Source of the DNA: Ruminococcus sp.
Lineage (GTDB): Bacteria > Bacillota > Clostridia > Oscillospirales > Ruminococcaceae
Assembly (NCBI GenBank): GCA_017542125.1
Contig: JAFXXU010000002.1
Location: 1 to 39,669 of the forward strand
Length of the DNA: 39,669 nt
Direction of reading: 5' to 3'
Positions 12,756 to 20,247 of this stretch are shown one piece after another (the stretch's first letter is position 1; every line of letters begins with the position of its first letter). Under the pieces are notes generated by a model. The model was not told the DNA's origin, searched no databases, and saw only the letters and a program-made list of their open reading frames with translations. A program made the translations under genes and the position numbers.

Positions 12756-14189
12756 ATGAAACTTTATGATCTTATAAAAGGAATAGCGCAGACATCTCTG
12801 CCGGACAGAGAGATCACAGACGTCACCTCGGACACCCGCAAGGAGCTGCCCGCAGGCTTTGTGTTCGTGTGCATCAAGGGCAATACCTTCGACGGCCACA
12901 ATGCCGCAAAGGATATGCTGCAAAAGGGCGCGGCGGCAGTCATCACCGAGCGCGACCTGGGTCTGCCCGAGCAGATAATCGTCGAGGACACCAGAGCCGT
13001 TTACCCCGAGCTCTGCGCCAGATATTTCGGCGACCCCCAGAACAGCTTAAAGCTCATAGGCGTCACCGGCACCAACGGCAAGACCACCATCACCACCGTT
13101 ATGAAAAAGGTGCTTGACGGCTTCGGCAAGAAGGTGGGTCTCATAGGCACCTGCCAGAACGAGATCTGCGATAAGACGGTCCCCACCGACCGCACCACCC
13201 CCGAGCCTTACGAGCTCTTTGAGCTTTTCAGGAAGATGGCGGATGCGGGCTGCGAGTATGTCATAATGGAGGCATCCTCTCAGGGTCTGGAGCAGAAGAG
13301 GCTGGGTCCCTGCGAGTTTGCGGTGGGCATATTCACCAACCTCACCCAGGATCACCTTGATGTCCACGGAACTATGGAGAACTACTATCAGGCCAAGAAG
13401 CTGCTCTTTGACGTTTCGGCTCAGGCCATAATCAATATCGACGATTTCTACGGCAGGCGCTATCTTGAGGAGATCAGCTGCCCGAAGAACACCTACTCCG
13501 CAGAGCAGAAGGCGGATTTCTATGCCGAGGATATCCTCCTTTCGGCAAGCGGCGTAAAGTACGTCTACTGCGACGGCAAGAGCAAGCACAATGTTGATTT
13601 CAAAATGCCCGGAGTGTTCAACGTCTCCAACTCCCTGGCGGTCATCGCCTGCTGCGAGACTTTGGGCTTCGGTGCCGAGGCTGTTATCAGGCAGCTCAAT
13701 AATATGCAGGGCGTCCGCGGCAGAGCAGAGGTAGTCCCCACAGGCCGGGATTTCACCGTTATCTGCGACTACGCCCACACCCCCGACGCGCTGGCTAACG
13801 TCCTCTCGGCTATCAGAACGGGTGCAGAGGGCAAGGTAAAGTGCCTCTTCGGCTGCGGCGGCAACCGTGACGCCACCAAGCGCCCCCTAATGGCAGCAGC
13901 AGCGGCGGACAATTCCGATTTTCTCATCGTTACCTCCGATAACCCGAGAAATGAGGATCCCGAGGAGATAATCTCCGAGATCCTCACGGGTCTCGAGGGC
14001 AAGGATACCCCCTACATCAAGATCACCGACAGGCGCGAGGCCATCCACTGGGCGATCAAGAACGCCGAGAAGGATGACATCATCGTGCTGGCAGGCAAGG
14101 GTCACGAGGACTATCAGATCCTCGCCGGCGGCGTGAAGATCCACTTCGACGAGCGCGAGGTAGTCGCCGAGGCTCTGGCAGAGTGCTGA
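12756..14189 (+). CDS. murE: UDP-MurNAc-L-Ala-D-Glu:meso-diaminopimelate ligase MurE
   Basis: This 477-residue Mur ligase adds the third residue of the peptidoglycan stem peptide in the cytoplasm using ATP. The P-loop GVTGTNGKTT lies at about 102-111, the carbamylated-lysine region in the middle domain, and the specificity motif DNPRNEDP at about 395-402. DNPR with the following acidic residues is the pattern of meso-diaminopimelate-adding enzymes, so the wall should be DAP-type. Length is normal. An AGGGAGAAGG site precedes the ATG, 33 bases after the PBP stop. Confidence 0.97.
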   Translation: MKLYDLIKGIAQTSLPDREITDVTSDTRKELPAGFVFVCIKGNTFDGHNAAKDMLQKGAAAVITERDLGLPEQIIVEDTRAVYPELCARYFGDPQNSLKLIGVTGTNGKTTITTVMKKVLDGFGKKVGLIGTCQNEICDKTVPTDRTTPEPYELFELFRKMADAGCEYVIMEASSQGLEQKRLGPCEFAVGIFTNLTQDHLDVHGTMENYYQAKKLLFDVSAQAIINIDDFYGRRYLEEISCPKNTYSAEQKADFYAEDILLSASGVKYVYCDGKSKHNVDFKMPGVFNVSNSLAVIACCETLGFGAEAVIRQLNNMQGVRGRAEVVPTGRDFTVICDYAHTPDALANVLSAIRTGAEGKVKCLFGCGGNRDATKRPLMAAAAADNSDFLIVTSDNPRNEDPEEIISEILTGLEGKDTPYIKITDRREAIHWAIKNAEKDDIIVLAGKGHEDYQILAGGVKIHFDEREVVAEALAEC

Positions 14190-14236: not shown

Positions 14237-15589
14237 ATGGACAAAATGACGCTTGGCGAGATCGTCGCGGCAGTGGACGGCAGCTTCGGCTACCCGTCGG
14301 ATGCGGATGTTCTGAGCATATCCACCGATACGCGGAAGATCACGGAGGATTCTGTGTTCCTGGCGCTCAAGGGCGATAACTTCGACGGTCACGACTTCGC
14401 AGCCAAGGCTATGGAGCAGGGCGCTCTTGCCGTCATAACCGAAAGACCCGTTGAGGGGGCTAAGTGCATTATTGTAGACTCCACAGCAAAGGCTCTCCTT
14501 GACCTGGGGCATTATTACCGTATGAAATTCGATATCCCCCTGGTGGGCATCACCGGCTCGGTGGGCAAGACCACTACCAAGGATATGATTGCCTGCGTGG
14601 TCTCCGGCAGGTATAAGACCCTTAAGACCGCCGGCAACCACAATAACGAGATAGGCGTCCCCCAGACCCTTTTCGGTCTTGACAGCAGCTATGAGGCCGC
14701 GGTCATCGAGATGGGTATGAACCACGCGGGGGAGATGTCCCGCCTCTCCACCTGCTCGGCACCCAACTGCTGCGTCATCACCAATATAGGCGTTTCCCAT
14801 ATCGAGAACCTGGGCTCTCAGGAGAATATCCTCCGGGCCAAGCTGGAGATACTGGACGGCGCCTCCCCCGACGCCCCCCTCATCCTGAACGGGGACGATA
14901 AGCTGCTGGCTTCGGCAGAGCTCCGGGGCAGGGAAGTCATCTACTATTCGCTCAAGGATAAGGACTGCGCCGTTTTCGCCTCGGATGTAAGAGCCGAGGA
15001 GGGCGCCGTAAGCTTTGATATCAACTATGAGGGGAAGAAATACCCCGCAGTGGTCAATGCTTTGGGCGAGCATAACGTCCGCAACGCGCTGGCAGCATTC
15101 ACCGTCGGCGTAAGGCTGGGCATCGACCCCGAAGCCTGTGCTGAGGCTCTGGCTGATTACAAGCCCGAGGGTCTCCGCCAGAACATCAAGGTCAGAAACG
15201 GCATCACTATGATCGTCGATTGCTACAACGCAGCCCCTGATTCCATGAGAGCCGCCTTCAATGTGTTATCACAGGTCAGGGTGGGCGAGGGCGGCAGGCG
15301 CTTCTGTGTCCTGGCCGATATGCTGGAGCTGGGCAAGAACTCAAAGACCTACCATAAGCAGGTAGGCAAATACATCAAGGCTGATATGCTGCTTTGCTAC
15401 GGCGAGAACTCGGCTTTCTATATCGAGGGCGCCGTAAAGAAGGGCTTTGACGAAAGCTGCTGCCGCCATTTCGACGACAAGCAGGAGCTCGCGGCGTTTC
15501 TGAAGTCACAGCTCCGTGAGGGTGATGCGGTGCTCTTCAAGGGCAGCCGCGGTATGAAGCTCGAGGAGGTCATCGAGAGTCTTGAATGA
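14237..15589 (+). CDS. murF: UDP-MurNAc-tripeptide:D-alanyl-D-alanine ligase MurF
   Basis: This 450-residue ATP-dependent ligase adds D-Ala-D-Ala to the UDP-MurNAc-tripeptide. It shows the P-loop GITGSVGKTTTK (about 104-115), the MurF-specific TAGNHNNEIGVPQTL, EMGMNHAGE and a DCYNAAPDSM segment in the C-terminal domain. The ATG follows AAAGGAGA by 8 bases. It directly follows murE as in most dcw clusters. Its last codons overlap the TTG start of the next gene. Confidence 0.97.
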   Translation: MDKMTLGEIVAAVDGSFGYPSDADVLSISTDTRKITEDSVFLALKGDNFDGHDFAAKAMEQGALAVITERPVEGAKCIIVDSTAKALLDLGHYYRMKFDIPLVGITGSVGKTTTKDMIACVVSGRYKTLKTAGNHNNEIGVPQTLFGLDSSYEAAVIEMGMNHAGEMSRLSTCSAPNCCVITNIGVSHIENLGSQENILRAKLEILDGASPDAPLILNGDDKLLASAELRGREVIYYSLKDKDCAVFASDVRAEEGAVSFDINYEGKKYPAVVNALGEHNVRNALAAFTVGVRLGIDPEACAEALADYKPEGLRQNIKVRNGITMIVDCYNAAPDSMRAAFNVLSQVRVGEGGRRFCVLADMLELGKNSKTYHKQVGKYIKADMLLCYGENSAFYIEGAVKKGFDESCCRHFDDKQELAAFLKSQLREGDAVLFKGSRGMKLEEVIESLE

Positions 15590-16622
15590 GCTTCTTGATC
15601 TGCTTTTTCGCGTATGCGTGCCGCTTGCCTTTGAGGCGGCCTCGGTATTCCTGCTAGGGTTTGCGCTGATTCCTCTCCTACGCGCAAAAAAGACCGGCAG
15701 GATGGAAAGGCGCCTGGGCAAGCGGTTTGCTGCCGACGGGAGCGAGCCCTCTATGGGCGGGGTGCTTATGGGGCTCGCCTTCGCGGTGTGGTATCTGCCC
15801 AACTGCTTTGCGGCAAGGCTGGCCTCCACCGCTGTCTCACAGGACAGCTGCGGGGGACTTATATCCGCCGGCGTTTACGCCTTGCTGATAATGCTCATAG
15901 GCGTTTACGAGGACAGAGAAAAACAGTTCCGGGGGAGACCCTTCGCCTTAAAGCCCACTCTGCGGCTGCTGGCCGAGCTTATGCTGAGCCTGACGCTGCT
16001 GATCTCCATAAGCCTTTTCGGCGGGCGGGATACGGCGGTGATGCTGCCTTTCAGGCTGGGATATCTGGAGCTTGGGATATTCTATTACCCCCTGACCGCC
16101 ATTATTATGACATTGGCGATCCACGCCTTTGACCTGCACTTCTGCGCAGGGTCAGACCAGAGCAAGTCTGTGGGAGGGCTCAACGAGGTCTCGGGTGCCT
16201 TGACCTTTATTACCCTTGCCCTCTGCTGCGAGACTGCTTACAGCCTGGCAGGGTCGTTCCTTGCGGTGTACGCCGCAGCCTGCTGCACAGGTATGCTTAT
16301 GTGGACGTTCCCCCCGGCAAAGCTCATCACCGGTCAGTCGGGAGCTATGCTTACGGGAGGGCTCTTCGCAGCCTGCGTCGTCCTCTCGAAAATGGAGCTG
16401 CTGTTCTTTACCGCAGCCCTGCCCCAGCTCATAAGCGGGGCATATGTCCTGATATGCCATCTTAAAAAGAACAAAACAGACCAGCCCCGGAGTTTTTCCG
16501 AAAAGCTCCGTCAGGCCGGTCTTACCGATATAAGGATACTGCTGGTATCCGCTGTTATGAGCCTGGTGGGCGGGGCGCTGTCCCTGCTGCTGGCTCTCTA
16601 CGCACATTCCACCCGTCTGTGA
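15582..16622 (+). CDS. Degenerate MraY-like membrane protein (catalytic residues missing)
   Basis: This 346-residue multi-pass protein aligns by eye with MraY (phospho-MurNAc-pentapeptide transferase), which makes lipid I, and sits where mraY normally lies. Matching landmarks: EPSMGG (55-60) for the MraY PTMGG, GVYEDREK (107-114) for the DDxxK loop, HAFDL at 181 for NAVNLTDG, ITGQSG at 249-254 for MGDxGS, and a C-terminal LRQAGLTDIRILL for the PxHHHxE-KGW region. At the key sites the first Asp of DDxxK is Glu110, the Asn/Asp of NxxNxTDG are lost, the third catalytic Asp is Gln252, and the His triad is absent. It therefore probably lacks transferase activity. The frame is intact, so this looks like a conserved pseudoenzyme, not a decayed gene. 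Start TTG overlaps murF, behind GAGGAGG. A true mraY should exist elsewhere. Confidence 0.75.
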   Translation: MNELLDLLFRVCVPLAFEAASVFLLGFALIPLLRAKKTGRMERRLGKRFAADGSEPSMGGVLMGLAFAVWYLPNCFAARLASTAVSQDSCGGLISAGVYALLIMLIGVYEDREKQFRGRPFALKPTLRLLAELMLSLTLLISISLFGGRDTAVMLPFRLGYLELGIFYYPLTAIIMTLAIHAFDLHFCAGSDQSKSVGGLNEVSGALTFITLALCCETAYSLAGSFLAVYAAACCTGMLMWTFPPAKLITGQSGAMLTGGLFAACVVLSKMELLFFTAALPQLISGAYVLICHLKKNKTDQPRSFSEKLRQAGLTDIRILLVSAVMSLVGGALSLLLALYAHSTRL

Positions 16623-16640
16623 TCCGAGGAGGTCAGCCCA

Positions 16641-17888
16641 TTGGAAGGATATACCGAAAACGATGCCCTCACGGTCCCCCGGGAGGAAGCCCCCGCTCCG
16701 GAGCCCCCGAAGCAGAAGGAAGCCTCCCCAAAGATCGCCCAGGCACGCAAAAAATTCAATCTCAGAGTTATCAGGAAGGAAATAGATAAGCCCTTCTGCA
16801 TCCTGATCCTGGCTCTGCTGGTCTTCGGCATCGTGATGATGTTCTCGGCGAGCTATGCCAGAGCCATCGCCGAGCTGGGCGACGGCTATTACTACGTCAA
16901 GAAGCAGATATTCTCGGCTGTGCTGGGTCTTATCTTTATGATAGTGGTGTCCTTCATCGACTACCACTTCTTCCAGACCACCTATATCGCCTACGGCTTC
17001 TTCTTGGGCTCGGTGGCGATATCCATCTATACCGTCGTCTTCGGCACCTCTACCGCCGACGCTACCCGCTGGCTGGATCTTGGCTTTATCCAATTGCAGC
17101 CTTCGGAGATAATGAAAGTGGGCTTCATAATCATCTTCGCCTTCATTATGGCGGTGAACTTCCCCTACTTCAAGAGCTGGCGGTATTCGACCCTGCCCTT
17201 TGCCATTATAATGGCTATCGTAATGGGCATACTGGTGCTGCAAAGGCATATGTCGGCGGTACTGCTCATGGGTATCATCGGCCTCACGATGATGTTCGTC
17301 AGCGGGATGCCCAAGAAGCATTTCTTCATATTCATCGGCCTCGCCGCTCTGGCGGGAGGTCTGCTCATCCTTTACAAGATGTTCGTGGATAAGGACTTCG
17401 GCTACATAACCGACCGTATCCAGAGCTGGAGAGACCCCCTCTCCGACCCCACGGATAAGACCCTGCAGACCTACAACTCCCTGATAGCCATAGGCTCCGG
17501 CGGAGTATTCGGCCTGGGCTTCGGCGAATCAAGGCAGAAGTATCTCTACCTCCCCGAGTCCCAGAACGACTTCGTGTTCTCGGTAGTCTGCGAGGAGCTG
17601 GGGCTTATCGGAGCCCTCTGCGTGATACTCCTGTTCGTGATGTTCATTCTCAGAGGCTTCTATATCGCCTCCCGGGCAAAGGATCGCTTCGGTATGCTAA
17701 TGGCTACCGGCATCACCGTACAGATAGGCGCTCAGGCGCTTCTGAACATCGCCGTTGCCAGCAACGCCTTCCCCAACACGGGAATATCCCTGCCGTTTTT
17801 CAGCTACGGCGGCACCGCGCTGCTGATCCAGTTGGCCGAGATGGGCATACTGCTCAGCATCTCGCGGCAGTCGAACACGGCGAAATAA
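16641..17888 (+). CDS. ftsW: SEDS peptidoglycan glycosyltransferase FtsW
   Basis: This 415-residue polytopic membrane protein belongs to the SEDS family, which polymerises lipid II and works with the class B PBP encoded upstream. After a Pro-rich cytoplasmic N-terminus (about 50 residues) it has some ten membrane segments, MMFSASYARA in the first periplasmic loop, the SEDS loop ESQNDFVFSVVCEELG with its conserved Asp, and the terminal PNTGISLPFFSYGG signature. The TTG start follows GAGGAGG by 8 bases. Its dcw position argues for FtsW (or the sporulation variant SpoVE) instead of RodA. Confidence 0.93.
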   Translation: MEGYTENDALTVPREEAPAPEPPKQKEASPKIAQARKKFNLRVIRKEIDKPFCILILALLVFGIVMMFSASYARAIAELGDGYYYVKKQIFSAVLGLIFMIVVSFIDYHFFQTTYIAYGFFLGSVAISIYTVVFGTSTADATRWLDLGFIQLQPSEIMKVGFIIIFAFIMAVNFPYFKSWRYSTLPFAIIMAIVMGILVLQRHMSAVLLMGIIGLTMMFVSGMPKKHFFIFIGLAALAGGLLILYKMFVDKDFGYITDRIQSWRDPLSDPTDKTLQTYNSLIAIGSGGVFGLGFGESRQKYLYLPESQNDFVFSVVCEELGLIGALCVILLFVMFILRGFYIASRAKDRFGMLMATGITVQIGAQALLNIAVASNAFPNTGISLPFFSYGGTALLIQLAEMGILLSISRQSNTAK

Positions 17889-18185: not shown

Positions 18186-18203
18186 AAAACTGGAGTGATA
18201 TGT

Positions 18204-19340
18204 ATGCTCAGAGTATTGTTGGCAGGCGGAGGTACTGCGGGTCATATAAACCCCGCCCTCGCTATTGCGGAGATCATAAAGGAACACCACCCGGATGCGG
18301 AGTTCTGCTTTGCAGGGCACCCCGATAAGCTGGAGGCCAAGCTTGTCCCCCAGGCGGGCTACCGATTTGAGCCCATTAAGATCGAGGGTCTGCAGAGAAA
18401 GCTCACCGTGGGCAACGTGGGCAGGAATTTCAAGGCGGCTCACTATCTCCTCTGGTCGGGGAGAAGAGCAGGGCAGATCATCAAGGATTTCAAGCCCGAT
18501 CTCGTTGTGGGTACGGGGGGCTATGTCTCCGGACCCGTGGTGAGAAAAGCCGCTAAAATGGGTATCAAGACAGCTATCCACGAGGCCAATGCCTACGCCG
18601 GGATGACCACCAAGCTGTTAAGCAAGCAGGTGGATAAGATAATGCTCACCGTCAAGGAGACCAAGAATCTCGACGAGAGCGTTATGGATAAGGTGACTGT
18701 CACCGGGCTGCCCGTAAGGCACGCCTTTGAGAAGCGCTCAAAGTCCGAGGCCAGAAAGGAACTGGGCTTCTCCGACAGCGATACCGTTATACTCTCCTGC
18801 GGAGGCAGCCTGGGTTCCAAGACCATCAACGAGAACGTCAAGAGGCTGTTCAAGTGGTATCAGGAGACGGGCAGGAACGTCTGCCATATCCATTCCTACG
18901 GCACCTATAAGGACTATGAACATTTCATCGACGAGCTTGAAGCCGAGGGCGTGAAGATCAAGGGCAACAGCCGCTATATCGTCAGCGAGTATGTAAATAT
19001 GCCCCTGGCCCTCACCGCCTGCGACCTGGTCATCACCCGCTGCGGTGCCAGCACCCTCACCGAGATAGAAGCCGTGGGCAGGGGGTCGATACTCATCCCC
19101 TCACCCATCGTCGCCGAGAACCACCAGTACCATAACGGTATGGTGCTCGAAAAGGCAGGGGCGGGCTTCGTCTTCGAGGAAAAGAATATAGGGGAGAATA
19201 CAATTACAGATAAAGTCGCCGAGCTGCTGGATGCTCCCGAGAAGCTCGCTGAGCTCTCAAGAAATGCCGCAGCCCTCTATATAGGCGATACCAACGAAAG
19301 GATCTACGAGACCGTAAGACCTCTCATCGAGGGAAAATGA
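18204..19340 (+). CDS. murG: UDP-GlcNAc:lipid I N-acetylglucosaminyltransferase MurG
   Basis: This 378-residue GT28 glycosyltransferase converts lipid I to lipid II at the inner face of the membrane. It shows the N-terminal AGGGTAGHINPALA loop, GTGGYVSGP, the second glycine loop SCGGSLGSKTIN and the donor-binding TRCGASTLTEIEAVGRGS. The ATG at 18204 was chosen because TGGAGTG ends 6 bases upstream and MLRVLLAGGG is the normal beginning; a GTG at 18195 would place the start inside the ribosome site. Its product MurG acts directly after MraY, whose local copy looks inactive. Confidence 0.97.
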   Translation: MLRVLLAGGGTAGHINPALAIAEIIKEHHPDAEFCFAGHPDKLEAKLVPQAGYRFEPIKIEGLQRKLTVGNVGRNFKAAHYLLWSGRRAGQIIKDFKPDLVVGTGGYVSGPVVRKAAKMGIKTAIHEANAYAGMTTKLLSKQVDKIMLTVKETKNLDESVMDKVTVTGLPVRHAFEKRSKSEARKELGFSDSDTVILSCGGSLGSKTINENVKRLFKWYQETGRNVCHIHSYGTYKDYEHFIDELEAEGVKIKGNSRYIVSEYVNMPLALTACDLVITRCGASTLTEIEAVGRGSILIPSPIVAENHQYHNGMVLEKAGAGFVFEEKNIGENTITDKVAELLDAPEKLAELSRNAAALYIGDTNERIYETVRPLIEGK

Positions 19341-19386: not shown

Positions 19387-20247
19387 ATGGGACGCGATAA
19401 AAGAAATTCAATGGATTCAATAAAGCTTCCCGACAAGGATTCTATAAACAACCTTTCGGGCGGTTATGTCAACAGCCGCCGCGTCTACAAGGAGCGAGGC
19501 GTTGACGATTTCACCAATGCCGTCAGAGCCGATTTCGACCAGGCTGCGCCCATAAAAGTCCCGGAGCGCACCGAGGCTCCCGAGCCCAAGGATGAGTTCG
19601 ATCAGCTCATCGAGAAGGAAAAGGCCAAGAACTCCGACGAGACTAAGAAAAAGAAGATCCGCGGCTATAAGGTGGGTAAAAAGTACATCCCCGCCTGGCT
19701 GGTGAGAAGGATAGCGATAATCGTGGTGAGCGTGCTTTTCGTGCTTATCACTTTCTTCCCGCCCATAACCATGTCCACCTCCGAAGGCTATGTCAGCGAT
19801 GCCGAGATCTTCGGCACCCAGAGCATATCCCAGGTAAAGGAGAGCATCCTCGCCAACGACTATGTCTATGACATCGAGAATATGTCCAGCGAGAATCCCA
19901 ACAACTACCGTGTCTGCACCGTAAATGTAGACCTGAAGAACTTCTCGCCCTATCCGGTGAAGCTCCCGGGCTTCAGCATCGTCAAGTGCGACCCTATGTA
20001 TAAGGATAAGATCATATCCGTCAGGATCGCCGGCGGAGAGGTGGAAATGAGCCCCTTCTCGGTAAAGACCGTCACCGTTGAAGTGTTTATGAATGTGGTA
20101 GACCTGACCCCCGAGCAGTTCGACGACGCTATGACCAGCCTCGTCCTCCGCACCAACGGTCTGCGCAAAATGATCGGACCCATAGCCATCCCCACGATGC
20201 CCGGCTTTGTCTTTGTTTCCGACTCCCTTGAATACCACCTTAAGTAA
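19387..20247 (+). CDS. Unrecognised bitopic membrane protein in the dcw cluster
   Basis: I do not recognise this 286-residue protein. Residues 1-110 are charged and probably disordered and cytoplasmic (KKKKIRGYKVGKKYIP ends this part). One membrane segment follows at about 114-135 (IAIIVVSVLFVLITFFPP). About 150 residues then lie outside; they look like a beta-rich domain with VNVDLKNFSPYPVKLPGF and AGGEVEMSPFSVKTVTVEVFMNV, reminiscent of Ig/LEA-type beta sandwiches, though I would not assign one. The topology matches other divisome subunits (FtsL, FtsQ, DivIC). It lies between murG and murA, 46 bases after murG, with an AAAGGAG site. A role in the divisome is inference from position. Confidence 0.85.
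   Translation: MGRDKRNSMDSIKLPDKDSINNLSGGYVNSRRVYKERGVDDFTNAVRADFDQAAPIKVPERTEAPEPKDEFDQLIEKEKAKNSDETKKKKIRGYKVGKKYIPAWLVRRIAIIVVSVLFVLITFFPPITMSTSEGYVSDAEIFGTQSISQVKESILANDYVYDIENMSSENPNNYRVCTVNVDLKNFSPYPVKLPGFSIVKCDPMYKDKIISVRIAGGEVEMSPFSVKTVTVEVFMNVVDLTPEQFDDAMTSLVLRTNGLRKMIGPIAIPTMPGFVFVSDSLEYHLK

What the first reader, a model, noticed from the sequence alone, without database searches (positions are those of the whole stretch)
15582..16622. MraY-like protein at the mraY position has lost the catalytic aspartates and His triad
The gene between murF and ftsW aligns with MraY landmark by landmark, but the DDxxK motif reads EDREK, the NxxNxTDG loop reads HAFDL, the MGDxGS aspartate is Gln252, and the HHH loop is gone. 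The frame is open for 346 codons and starts inside murF, so the gene appears to be maintained. A pseudoenzyme in place of mraY could be a scaffold that couples MurF, FtsW and MurG, a regulator of lipid I supply, or a lipid-phosphate binding protein. I have not seen this described.
Basis: partly seen in the sequence, partly recalled or inferred. Interest (0 to 1): 0.75.

Follow-up and report, generated by a model that had tools for sequence, protein, structure and literature searches.

The report
Dead MraY kept, replacement elsewhere
In Ruminococcus-type gut bacteria the cell-wall enzyme MraY has lost its active site at its usual chromosomal place, yet natural selection still preserves the protein, while a distant cousin elsewhere in the genome appears to make lipid I instead.

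Summary
The gene between murF and ftsW is an MraY homologue by profile but keeps one of eight residues essential in B. subtilis MraY. I found such a dead copy ("D") at that place in 28 genomes, including two Ruminococcus albus isolates; the Mg-binding Asp of MGDxGS is missing in 27 of 27 scored and in the 28th by eye. It is not plain decay: all 28 frames are open, murF-D-ftsW order holds in 22 of 22 contigs long enough to show it, and dN/dS is 0.09-0.16 in the 7 pairs tested.
All 28 also carry a second MraY-type gene ("S"), outside dcw, with seven of the eight residues; 12 of them were found through S. S is the only PF00953 match in ten of 25 S-bearing genomes, five of them isolates, so it very probably makes lipid I. 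Six genomes have lost D cleanly and join murF to ftsW, so D is dispensable there.
Best reading: S displaced MraY, and D persists as a non-catalytic membrane protein, most likely a docking partner for neighbouring wall enzymes. Takeover and selection are well supported; docking is inferred. My paper searches showed no description.

The parts
12756..14189 (+). murE
   Evidence: NCBIfam NF001126 563 bits, over cut-off
14237..15589 (+). murF, upstream neighbour, overlaps D by 8 bases
   Evidence: NCBIfam TIGR01143 412 bits, over cut-off
15563..15569 (+). GAGGAGG, likely ribosome-binding site of D, inside murF
   Evidence: sequence read; role inferred
15582..16622 (+). D: MraY homologue without its active site, 346 aa, TTG start
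   Evidence: PF00953 and TIGR00445; profile match to canonical MraY
15681..15761 (+). residues 34-60, loop A: R34, T38, R48 and D52 are new and invariant in the clade (DGSEP in place of K-GTP)
   Evidence: R34, T38, R48, D52 in 21 of 21 lineage-1 copies, G53 19, S54 20, E55 18; P56, G59, G60 also 21 of 21 but shared with canonical MraY; within-clade identity 0.62. Loop name recalled
15909..15914 (+). residues 110-111, E-D in place of the catalytic DD
16026..16091 (+). residues 149-170, periplasmic hairpin RDTAVMLPFRLGYLELGIFYYP, more conserved in D than in canonical MraY
   Evidence: identity 0.55 against 0.36. Topology recalled
16122..16145 (+). residues 181-188, HAFDLHFC in place of the NxxNxTDG loop
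16335..16337 (+). Q252 in place of the Mg-binding Asp of MGDxGS
   Evidence: Asp in 0 of 27 D copies, 17 of 17 canonical, 36 of 36 S
16497..16502 (+). residues 306-307, S-E in place of the first two His of HHH
16641..17888 (+). ftsW (SEDS), downstream neighbour, own GAGGAGG at 16626-16632
   Evidence: NCBIfam TIGR02614 322.6 bits, just under cut-off 337.5; sequence
18195..19340 (+). murG
   Evidence: NCBIfam TIGR01133 245.5 bits, just under cut-off 250.25

Best explanation
The protein is the genome's original dcw-encoded MraY after it lost catalysis. A distant MraY-type phosphotransferase (S, contig C70:4300-5238, outside the window) makes lipid I in its place; it probably entered these lineages by transfer among Clostridia. 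D is kept by selection as a non-catalytic membrane protein. I think it most likely serves as a docking platform: its loop A, on the cytoplasmic side, and its periplasmic hairpin hold partners of the wall machinery (MurF, MurG, FtsW or S itself) at the membrane. Shown by calculation: active-site loss, open frames, purifying selection, presence of S, clean losses of D. Inferred: that S is the lipid I synthase, that D is inactive, that S came by transfer, and the docking role. My separate estimates: takeover by S 0.9; D non-catalytic but functional 0.75; docking as the function 0.4.
For: Active site: of D98, D99, K116, N171, D174, D231, H289, H290 (list from PMC5039524, passages; the mapping by alignment is mine) the window protein keeps D99 only; over 27 D copies D231 is kept in 0, N171 in 0, H290 in 0, and no copy keeps more than 4 of the 8. 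Selection: D omega 0.09-0.16 in the 7 pairs tested, 2dlnL against omega 1 of 61-182. S: 7 of 8 residues in 36 of 36 rows; present in 16 of 16 genus genomes; the single PF00953 match in 10 of 25 S-bearing genomes, including 5 isolates, in three g47 genomes of 99% completeness, and in G004 and G012 of the genus. In 119 family genomes S (382-480 bits) occurs in 16, of which 13 show no canonical-type match; 94 others show only a canonical-range one (44-88 bits); 9 show none. Docking: in lineage 1 loop A keeps its conservation (ratio to canonical 0.99) and the hairpin exceeds it (1.53), while loops B, C and E fall to 0.45-0.58. A review notes that loop A was unresolved in the A. aeolicus MraY structure and may need a cytoplasmic partner, and proposes a MurF-MraY-MurG complex (PMC4929429, passages).
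Against: D has the highest omega of the genes compared in all 7 pairs, 1.4 to 2.9 times the next, and it is absent from six genomes with murF next to ftsW, so it is not essential. Some active-site residues persist: D99 in 26, H289 in 17, D174 in 15, K116 in 9 and D98 in 5 of 27. 9 of 21 lineage-1 copies have Glu at both D98 and D231, so altered catalysis is not excluded. S lacks the second His of HHH (Asp in 36 of 36) and scores 76.5 bits against the TIGR00445 cut-off of 192. The regional comparison was made after looking at the alignment; 101 of 5000 circular shifts reach it. Nothing here shows a partner, expression or a structure.
Confidence: 0.55

Rival explanations
1. D is a relic in slow decay: S made it redundant and it has simply not been lost yet.
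For: Highest omega in 7 of 7 pairs; clean loss in G004, G012, G078, G092, G155, G208; lineage-2 copies and the G079 copy are very diverged.
Against: Omega 0.09-0.16, far below 1, between copies that lack the Mg-binding Asp on both sides of each pair; 28 of 28 frames open, one of them cut by a contig end; four new residues invariant in 21 of 21.
Confidence: 0.15
2. D is a pseudo-subunit of S: it pairs with S as MraY pairs with itself, and tunes its activity or its lipid supply.
For: MraY is in monomer-dimer equilibrium and dimerisation goes with binding of C55-P (PMC9046198, passages); all 28 D genomes have S. For 12 of these S is there by construction, since they were found through S; D without S was not searched for in general.
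Against: S works without D in S-only genomes; D and S are only distantly alike and lie on different contigs or far apart in the genomes where both were placed.
Confidence: 0.2
3. D still has chemistry: a carboxylate set E-D-E or a new active site acts on another lipid phosphate or another sugar nucleotide.
For: In 16 of 21 lineage-1 copies D98 is Glu, in 20 of 21 D99 is Asp, in 11 of 21 D231 is Glu, both Glu together in 9 of 21; loop A carries a new acidic motif.
Against: In the window protein the Mg position is Gln; at that position lineage 1 has E, Q, V, T and H and lineage 2 has R, S, Q and A; N171 and H290 are gone in 27 of 27.
Confidence: 0.1
4. D is kept only so that ribosomes reach ftsW: a spacer for coupled translation.
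For: 8-base overlap with murF and an 18-base gap to ftsW.
Against: Selection acts on amino acids; ftsW has its own likely ribosome-binding site; murF and ftsW sit together without D in six genomes.
Confidence: 0.04

Closest known systems
MraY (phospho-N-acetylmuramoyl-pentapeptide transferase, TIGR00445; structures 5jnq, 4j72, 8g01)
   Same: Sequence profile, length and place between murF and ftsW; a profile of 12 D copies finds 5jnq at 1e-25 and 4j72 at 5e-18; similar hydropathy segments.
   Different: 7 of 8 essential residues changed in the window protein; 43 bits against a 192-bit cut-off; new residues in loop A. No structure of D was obtained.
S-type PNPT of Lachnospiraceae and Ruminococcus
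   Same: MraY-type protein in the same genomes; seven of eight essential residues in 36 of 36 rows.
   Different: Outside dcw, 312 aa in this genome, HDH in place of HHH, a shorter stretch after DD; own clade at 100/100.
dcw genes SpoVE/SpoVD of Clostridia, repurposed for sporulation (PMC10693644, passages)
   Same: A dcw gene that has given up its usual role while something else does the job.
   Different: SpoVE and SpoVD are described as enzymes; D has lost its active site. spoIVA occurs in 37 of 39 genomes, D-bearing and D-less, so sporulation does not separate them.
Membrane pseudoenzymes such as the inactive rhomboids (recalled, no call)
   Same: Membrane fold kept, catalysis lost, role taken to be binding.
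   Different: Unrelated family; function of D untested.

Membership tests
PNPT superfamily, Pfam PF00953 | score over the curated cut-off (27 bits) | tested here: met
   47.8 bits, 2e-12
MraY as an enzyme (TIGR00445 equivalog) | score over the curated cut-off (192 bits) | tested here: not met
   43.2 bits
MraY as an enzyme (TIGR00445 equivalog) | catalytic Asp pair DD | tested here: not met
   E110-D111; the second Asp is kept
MraY as an enzyme (TIGR00445 equivalog) | Mg-binding Asp of MGDxGS | tested here: not met
   Q252; Asp in 0 of 27 D copies
MraY as an enzyme (TIGR00445 equivalog) | HHH motif of loop E | tested here: not met
   S306, E307 in the window protein; first His kept in 17 of 27 D copies, second in 0
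MraY as an enzyme (TIGR00445 equivalog) | lipid I synthesis | not testable with these tools
   no assay
descendant of dcw mraY | place between murF and ftsW, and grouping with dcw MraY in a tree | tested here: met
   order in 22 of 22 contigs long enough; lineage 1 beside canonical MraY of the family at 87/81, not a starred branch, midpoint root
S as MraY enzyme | score over the TIGR00445 cut-off (192 bits) | tested here: not met
   76.5 bits for this genome's S, 106.9 for that of L. phytofermentans
S as MraY enzyme | all eight essential residues | tested here: not met
   7 of 8 in 36 of 36; H290 is Asp in 36 of 36
S as MraY enzyme | only PNPT in a peptidoglycan-making genome | tested here: met
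   one PF00953 match in 10 of 25 genomes (one of the ten, G079, also has a D copy that PF00953 does not see) and in three g47 genomes; MurF, FtsW and MurG present in g47

The most novel reading that the evidence does not exclude
An essential, near-universal enzyme was displaced by a distant cousin, and its dead original was turned, perhaps more than once, into a dedicated non-catalytic subunit of the dcw wall-synthesis machinery. That would separate the binding role of MraY from its chemistry and make the long-suspected MurF-MraY-MurG complex testable in a natural knock-out series.
Probability: 0.35. Interest if true: 0.78.

Novelty: new variant of a known kind. Interest (0 to 1): 0.62.

Why it matters
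MraY is usually taken as single-copy, essential and fixed in the dcw cluster (recalled); one study found the mraY tree the most congruent of the dcw genes with the species tree (PMC8871954, passages), and it is an antibiotic target. Here the gene an annotator would call mraY is probably not the enzyme, and the likely enzyme is a divergent protein under the curated MraY cut-off. The series canonical plus S (G033), dead plus S (R. albus and this genus), and S alone (g47, G004, G012, G078) is a natural experiment on whether MraY has a role beyond making lipid I.

Tried and rejected
Structure of D: not obtained; the prediction tool was not accepting jobs. Viral contigs as a source of relatives: none with the D alignment; one partial match with canonical MraY, not used. 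Sporulation as the reason for keeping D: spoIVA in 37 of 39 genomes, six D-less ones included, so uninformative. A single origin of all D copies: lineage 1 and lineage 2 fall in different places, but one clade is not rejected (AU p 0.117), so I do not claim two losses as shown. dN/dS in lineage 2: dS saturated or without bound, not used. In one search I chose seven pairs, not all; R. albus AR67 and G005 each serve in two. dS is above 2, or without bound, for some genes in the G002/G007, G005/G008, G010/G005 and albus/G077 pairs, so the albus, G003/G009 and G070/G072 pairs weigh most. The D profile over 295 order genomes matched 289, mostly canonical MraY, and cannot by itself tell D from MraY. 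Spacer and misannotation were rejected on selection and on profile evidence.

Papers: eight searches were answered. I saw only the rows listed, by title and start of abstract (in and 79 more papers matched than were listed). Passages only were read of PMC10693644, PMC5039524, PMC9046198, PMC11915815, PMC4929429, PMC6606608, PMC7738495 and PMC8871954; in PMC6606608 the 'MraY paralog' is human GPT. The library holds open-licence papers only, so print elsewhere is not excluded.

Full report
What is there. The frame at 15582-16622 (+) codes 346 residues, starts with TTG, overlaps murF by 8 bases and ends 18 bases before ftsW. A GAGGAGG lies 12 bases before the start and another before ftsW. Third-position GC is 0.70; its neighbours have 0.71-0.78. 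NCBIfam names the neighbours murE, murF, ftsW, murG, murA and ftsZ, and a SpoVD-type PBP upstream (ftsW, murG and the PBP score below their curated cut-offs). I call the gene D.

Is it MraY? By descent, very probably. Pfam PF00953 matches at 2e-12. NCBIfam's best hit is mraY but at 43.2 bits against a cut-off of 192. A profile of 12 D copies against ten canonical MraY of the order gives E = 3e-45 over 325 columns, and against the PDB it finds MraY chains first, 5jnq at 1e-25. The single sequence finds 5jnq at 2e-4, followed by chance antibody hits.

Is the active site gone? A review lists eight residues shown to be catalytically important in B. subtilis MraY: D98, D99, K116, N171, D174, D231, H289, H290 (PMC5039524, passages). 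I mapped them by alignment. The window protein has E, D, R, D, F, Q, S, E: one of eight kept. In 27 D copies (21 of lineage 1, 6 of lineage 2) the residues are kept as follows: D98 5, D99 26, K116 9, N171 0, D174 15, D231 0, H289 17, H290 0; each copy keeps one to four of the eight. So the loss is complete for the Mg-binding Asp, N171 and H290 and partial elsewhere. One copy, G015, is cut by its contig end before the His motif. All 17 canonical rows used keep all eight; three WecA-like rows were left out of that set. A 28th D copy, in G079, was read by eye and has Lys at the Mg position; it is not in these counts.

Who else has it? In the window's genus 13 of 16 genomes have D. Of the other three, G004 and G012 have murF followed directly by ftsW, with short gaps, and the dcw cluster of G013 was not found (63% complete). 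D also lies at the same place in R. albus AR67 and KH2T6 and in nine further genomes whose records are labelled Ruminococcus, in three genomes of genus g50, and in G079. The eleven and G079 came to hand through a scan for S, below. Order murF-D-ftsW holds in 22 of 22 dcw contigs that run far enough, of 24 examined with D. G078 and three g47 genomes have no D between murF and ftsW. So six genomes lack it cleanly.

The second gene. The genome holds another PF00953 protein at C70:4300-5238, 312 aa. I call its type S. S is in 16 of 16 genus genomes. It keeps seven of the eight residues in 36 of 36 rows; the eighth, H290, is Asp in all 36. It too scores below the MraY cut-off (76.5 bits), but the solved structures that it matches are MraY chains only (five in each). 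A scan of named genomes found S in Ruminococcus, R. albus, Butyrivibrio, Lachnospira, Lachnoclostridium phytofermentans and [Clostridium] fimetarium among others (best 80 of at least 544 kept). Of 25 such genomes, ten have a single PF00953 match, S itself; five of these are isolates. The count misses very diverged copies: G079 is among the ten and yet has a D. In g47, at 99% completeness, S is the only match while MurF, FtsW and MurG are present. A wall-making cell needs lipid I, so S is very probably the MraY enzyme there; this is inference from absence and not an assay. It relies on genomes being complete: G182 (99% complete) has no PF00953 match at all, and 9 of 119 family genomes lack any match to the S profile, so a missing match alone is weak.

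Association. In 119 genomes of the family, 16 hold S (382-480 bits; next best match 87.8). Three of these, G033, G373 and G396, also have a match in the canonical range; 13 do not. Another 94 have only a canonical-range match and 9 have none. In G033 the canonical copy was read and its motifs are intact. Of the 13, I have seen the dcw place in four: D in G000, G014 and G251, nothing in G092. All 28 D genomes have S, but for the 12 found through S this is by construction; the 13 of the genus and the 3 of g50 are free of that.

History. Trees put S in one clade at 100/100. Lineage 1 of D (13 genus plus 8 Ruminococcus rows) is one clade at 100/100 and sits beside canonical MraY of the family (87/81). 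Lineage 2 (g50 and G083, G074, G075) sits near the intact copy of G033 (99/89; 85/89, where the G079 copy is also inside). That suggests two losses of the active site, but a single D clade is not rejected (AU p 0.117), and branches are long. S of g50 groups with Butyrivibrio (99/99; 88/90), which fits separate arrival of S; not proven.

Decay or use? I fitted a pairwise codon model in a script. Omega of D is 0.111, 0.140, 0.114, 0.164, 0.159, 0.134 and 0.092 in seven chosen pairs, and each rejects omega 1 (2dlnL 61-182). The neighbours and S lie at or below 0.084, and D is 1.4 to 2.9 times the next highest gene of its pair. So D is under clear purifying selection, looser than its neighbours. 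The R. albus pair is closest (dS 0.19); dS is saturated for several genes in the more distant pairs. Both members of each pair already lack the Mg-binding Asp, so the selection measured is on the dead protein.

Where is the constraint? In lineage 1, R34, T38, R48 and D52 are invariant in 21 of 21 and differ from the canonical consensus; G53, S54 and E55 follow in 19, 20 and 18. With the inherited P56, G59 and G60 this gives DGSEPxxGG where canonical MraY has KxGTPxMGG. Mean pairwise identity in loop A is 0.62 against 0.63 in canonical MraY, in the periplasmic hairpin 0.55 against 0.36, but in loops B, C and E 0.39, 0.40 and 0.32 against 0.67, 0.76 and 0.71; loop D has 0.52 against 0.75. Region limits are mine and the topology is recalled; the regions were chosen after looking, and 101 of 5000 circular shifts do as well.

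What it does. A review reports that Mur enzymes recognise MraY and MurG, that loop A was not seen in the A. aeolicus structure and may need a cytoplasmic partner, and proposes a MurF-MraY-MurG complex (PMC4929429, passages). D keeps constraint in loop A and a place between murF and ftsW. The simplest function is docking. A partner role with S is the main rival, since MraY dimerises with C55-P (PMC9046198, passages). Loss of D in six genomes says that it can be useful and not essential.

Known or new. Paper searches with MraY plus Ruminococcus, pseudoenzyme, paralog, Lachnospiraceae, and phrases such as 'second mraY' and 'inactive mraY' showed nothing on this in the rows listed. A recent study of the MraY-like family shows no mention of it in the passages that I read (PMC11915815). 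Repurposed dcw genes are known in C. difficile (PMC10693644, passages). I score it a new variant of a known kind.

Noticed in passing
L003:4300-7927 (own genome, C70): S is followed by genes for an LPG_synthase_TM protein, a CDP-alcohol phosphatidyltransferase and a phosphatidylserine decarboxylase. Of 80 S loci 14 have all three downstream, 9 the last two, 1 the transferase alone, 1 an LPG-type hit on the other strand, 55 none (some loci end soon after S).
   Followed up: partly
S rows: The middle of HHH is Asp (HDH) in 36 of 36 S proteins; the two S proteins scanned score under the curated MraY cut-off, so annotation may miss the working enzyme.
   Followed up: partly
G033 (L226, L233), G081, G085: Genomes with both a canonical-motif MraY and S: a possible state before loss of the active site.
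   Followed up: partly
G182; nine genomes: Genomes without a PF00953 match (G182, 99% complete) or without a match to the S profile; assembly gaps or very divergent enzymes.
   Followed up: no
window 19387-20247: 286-aa protein between murG and murA with no NCBIfam match at 1e-5.
   Followed up: no
G033, G251, G288, G352: Two strong ftsW/spoVE-type genes: one in dcw, one beside murA.
   Followed up: no
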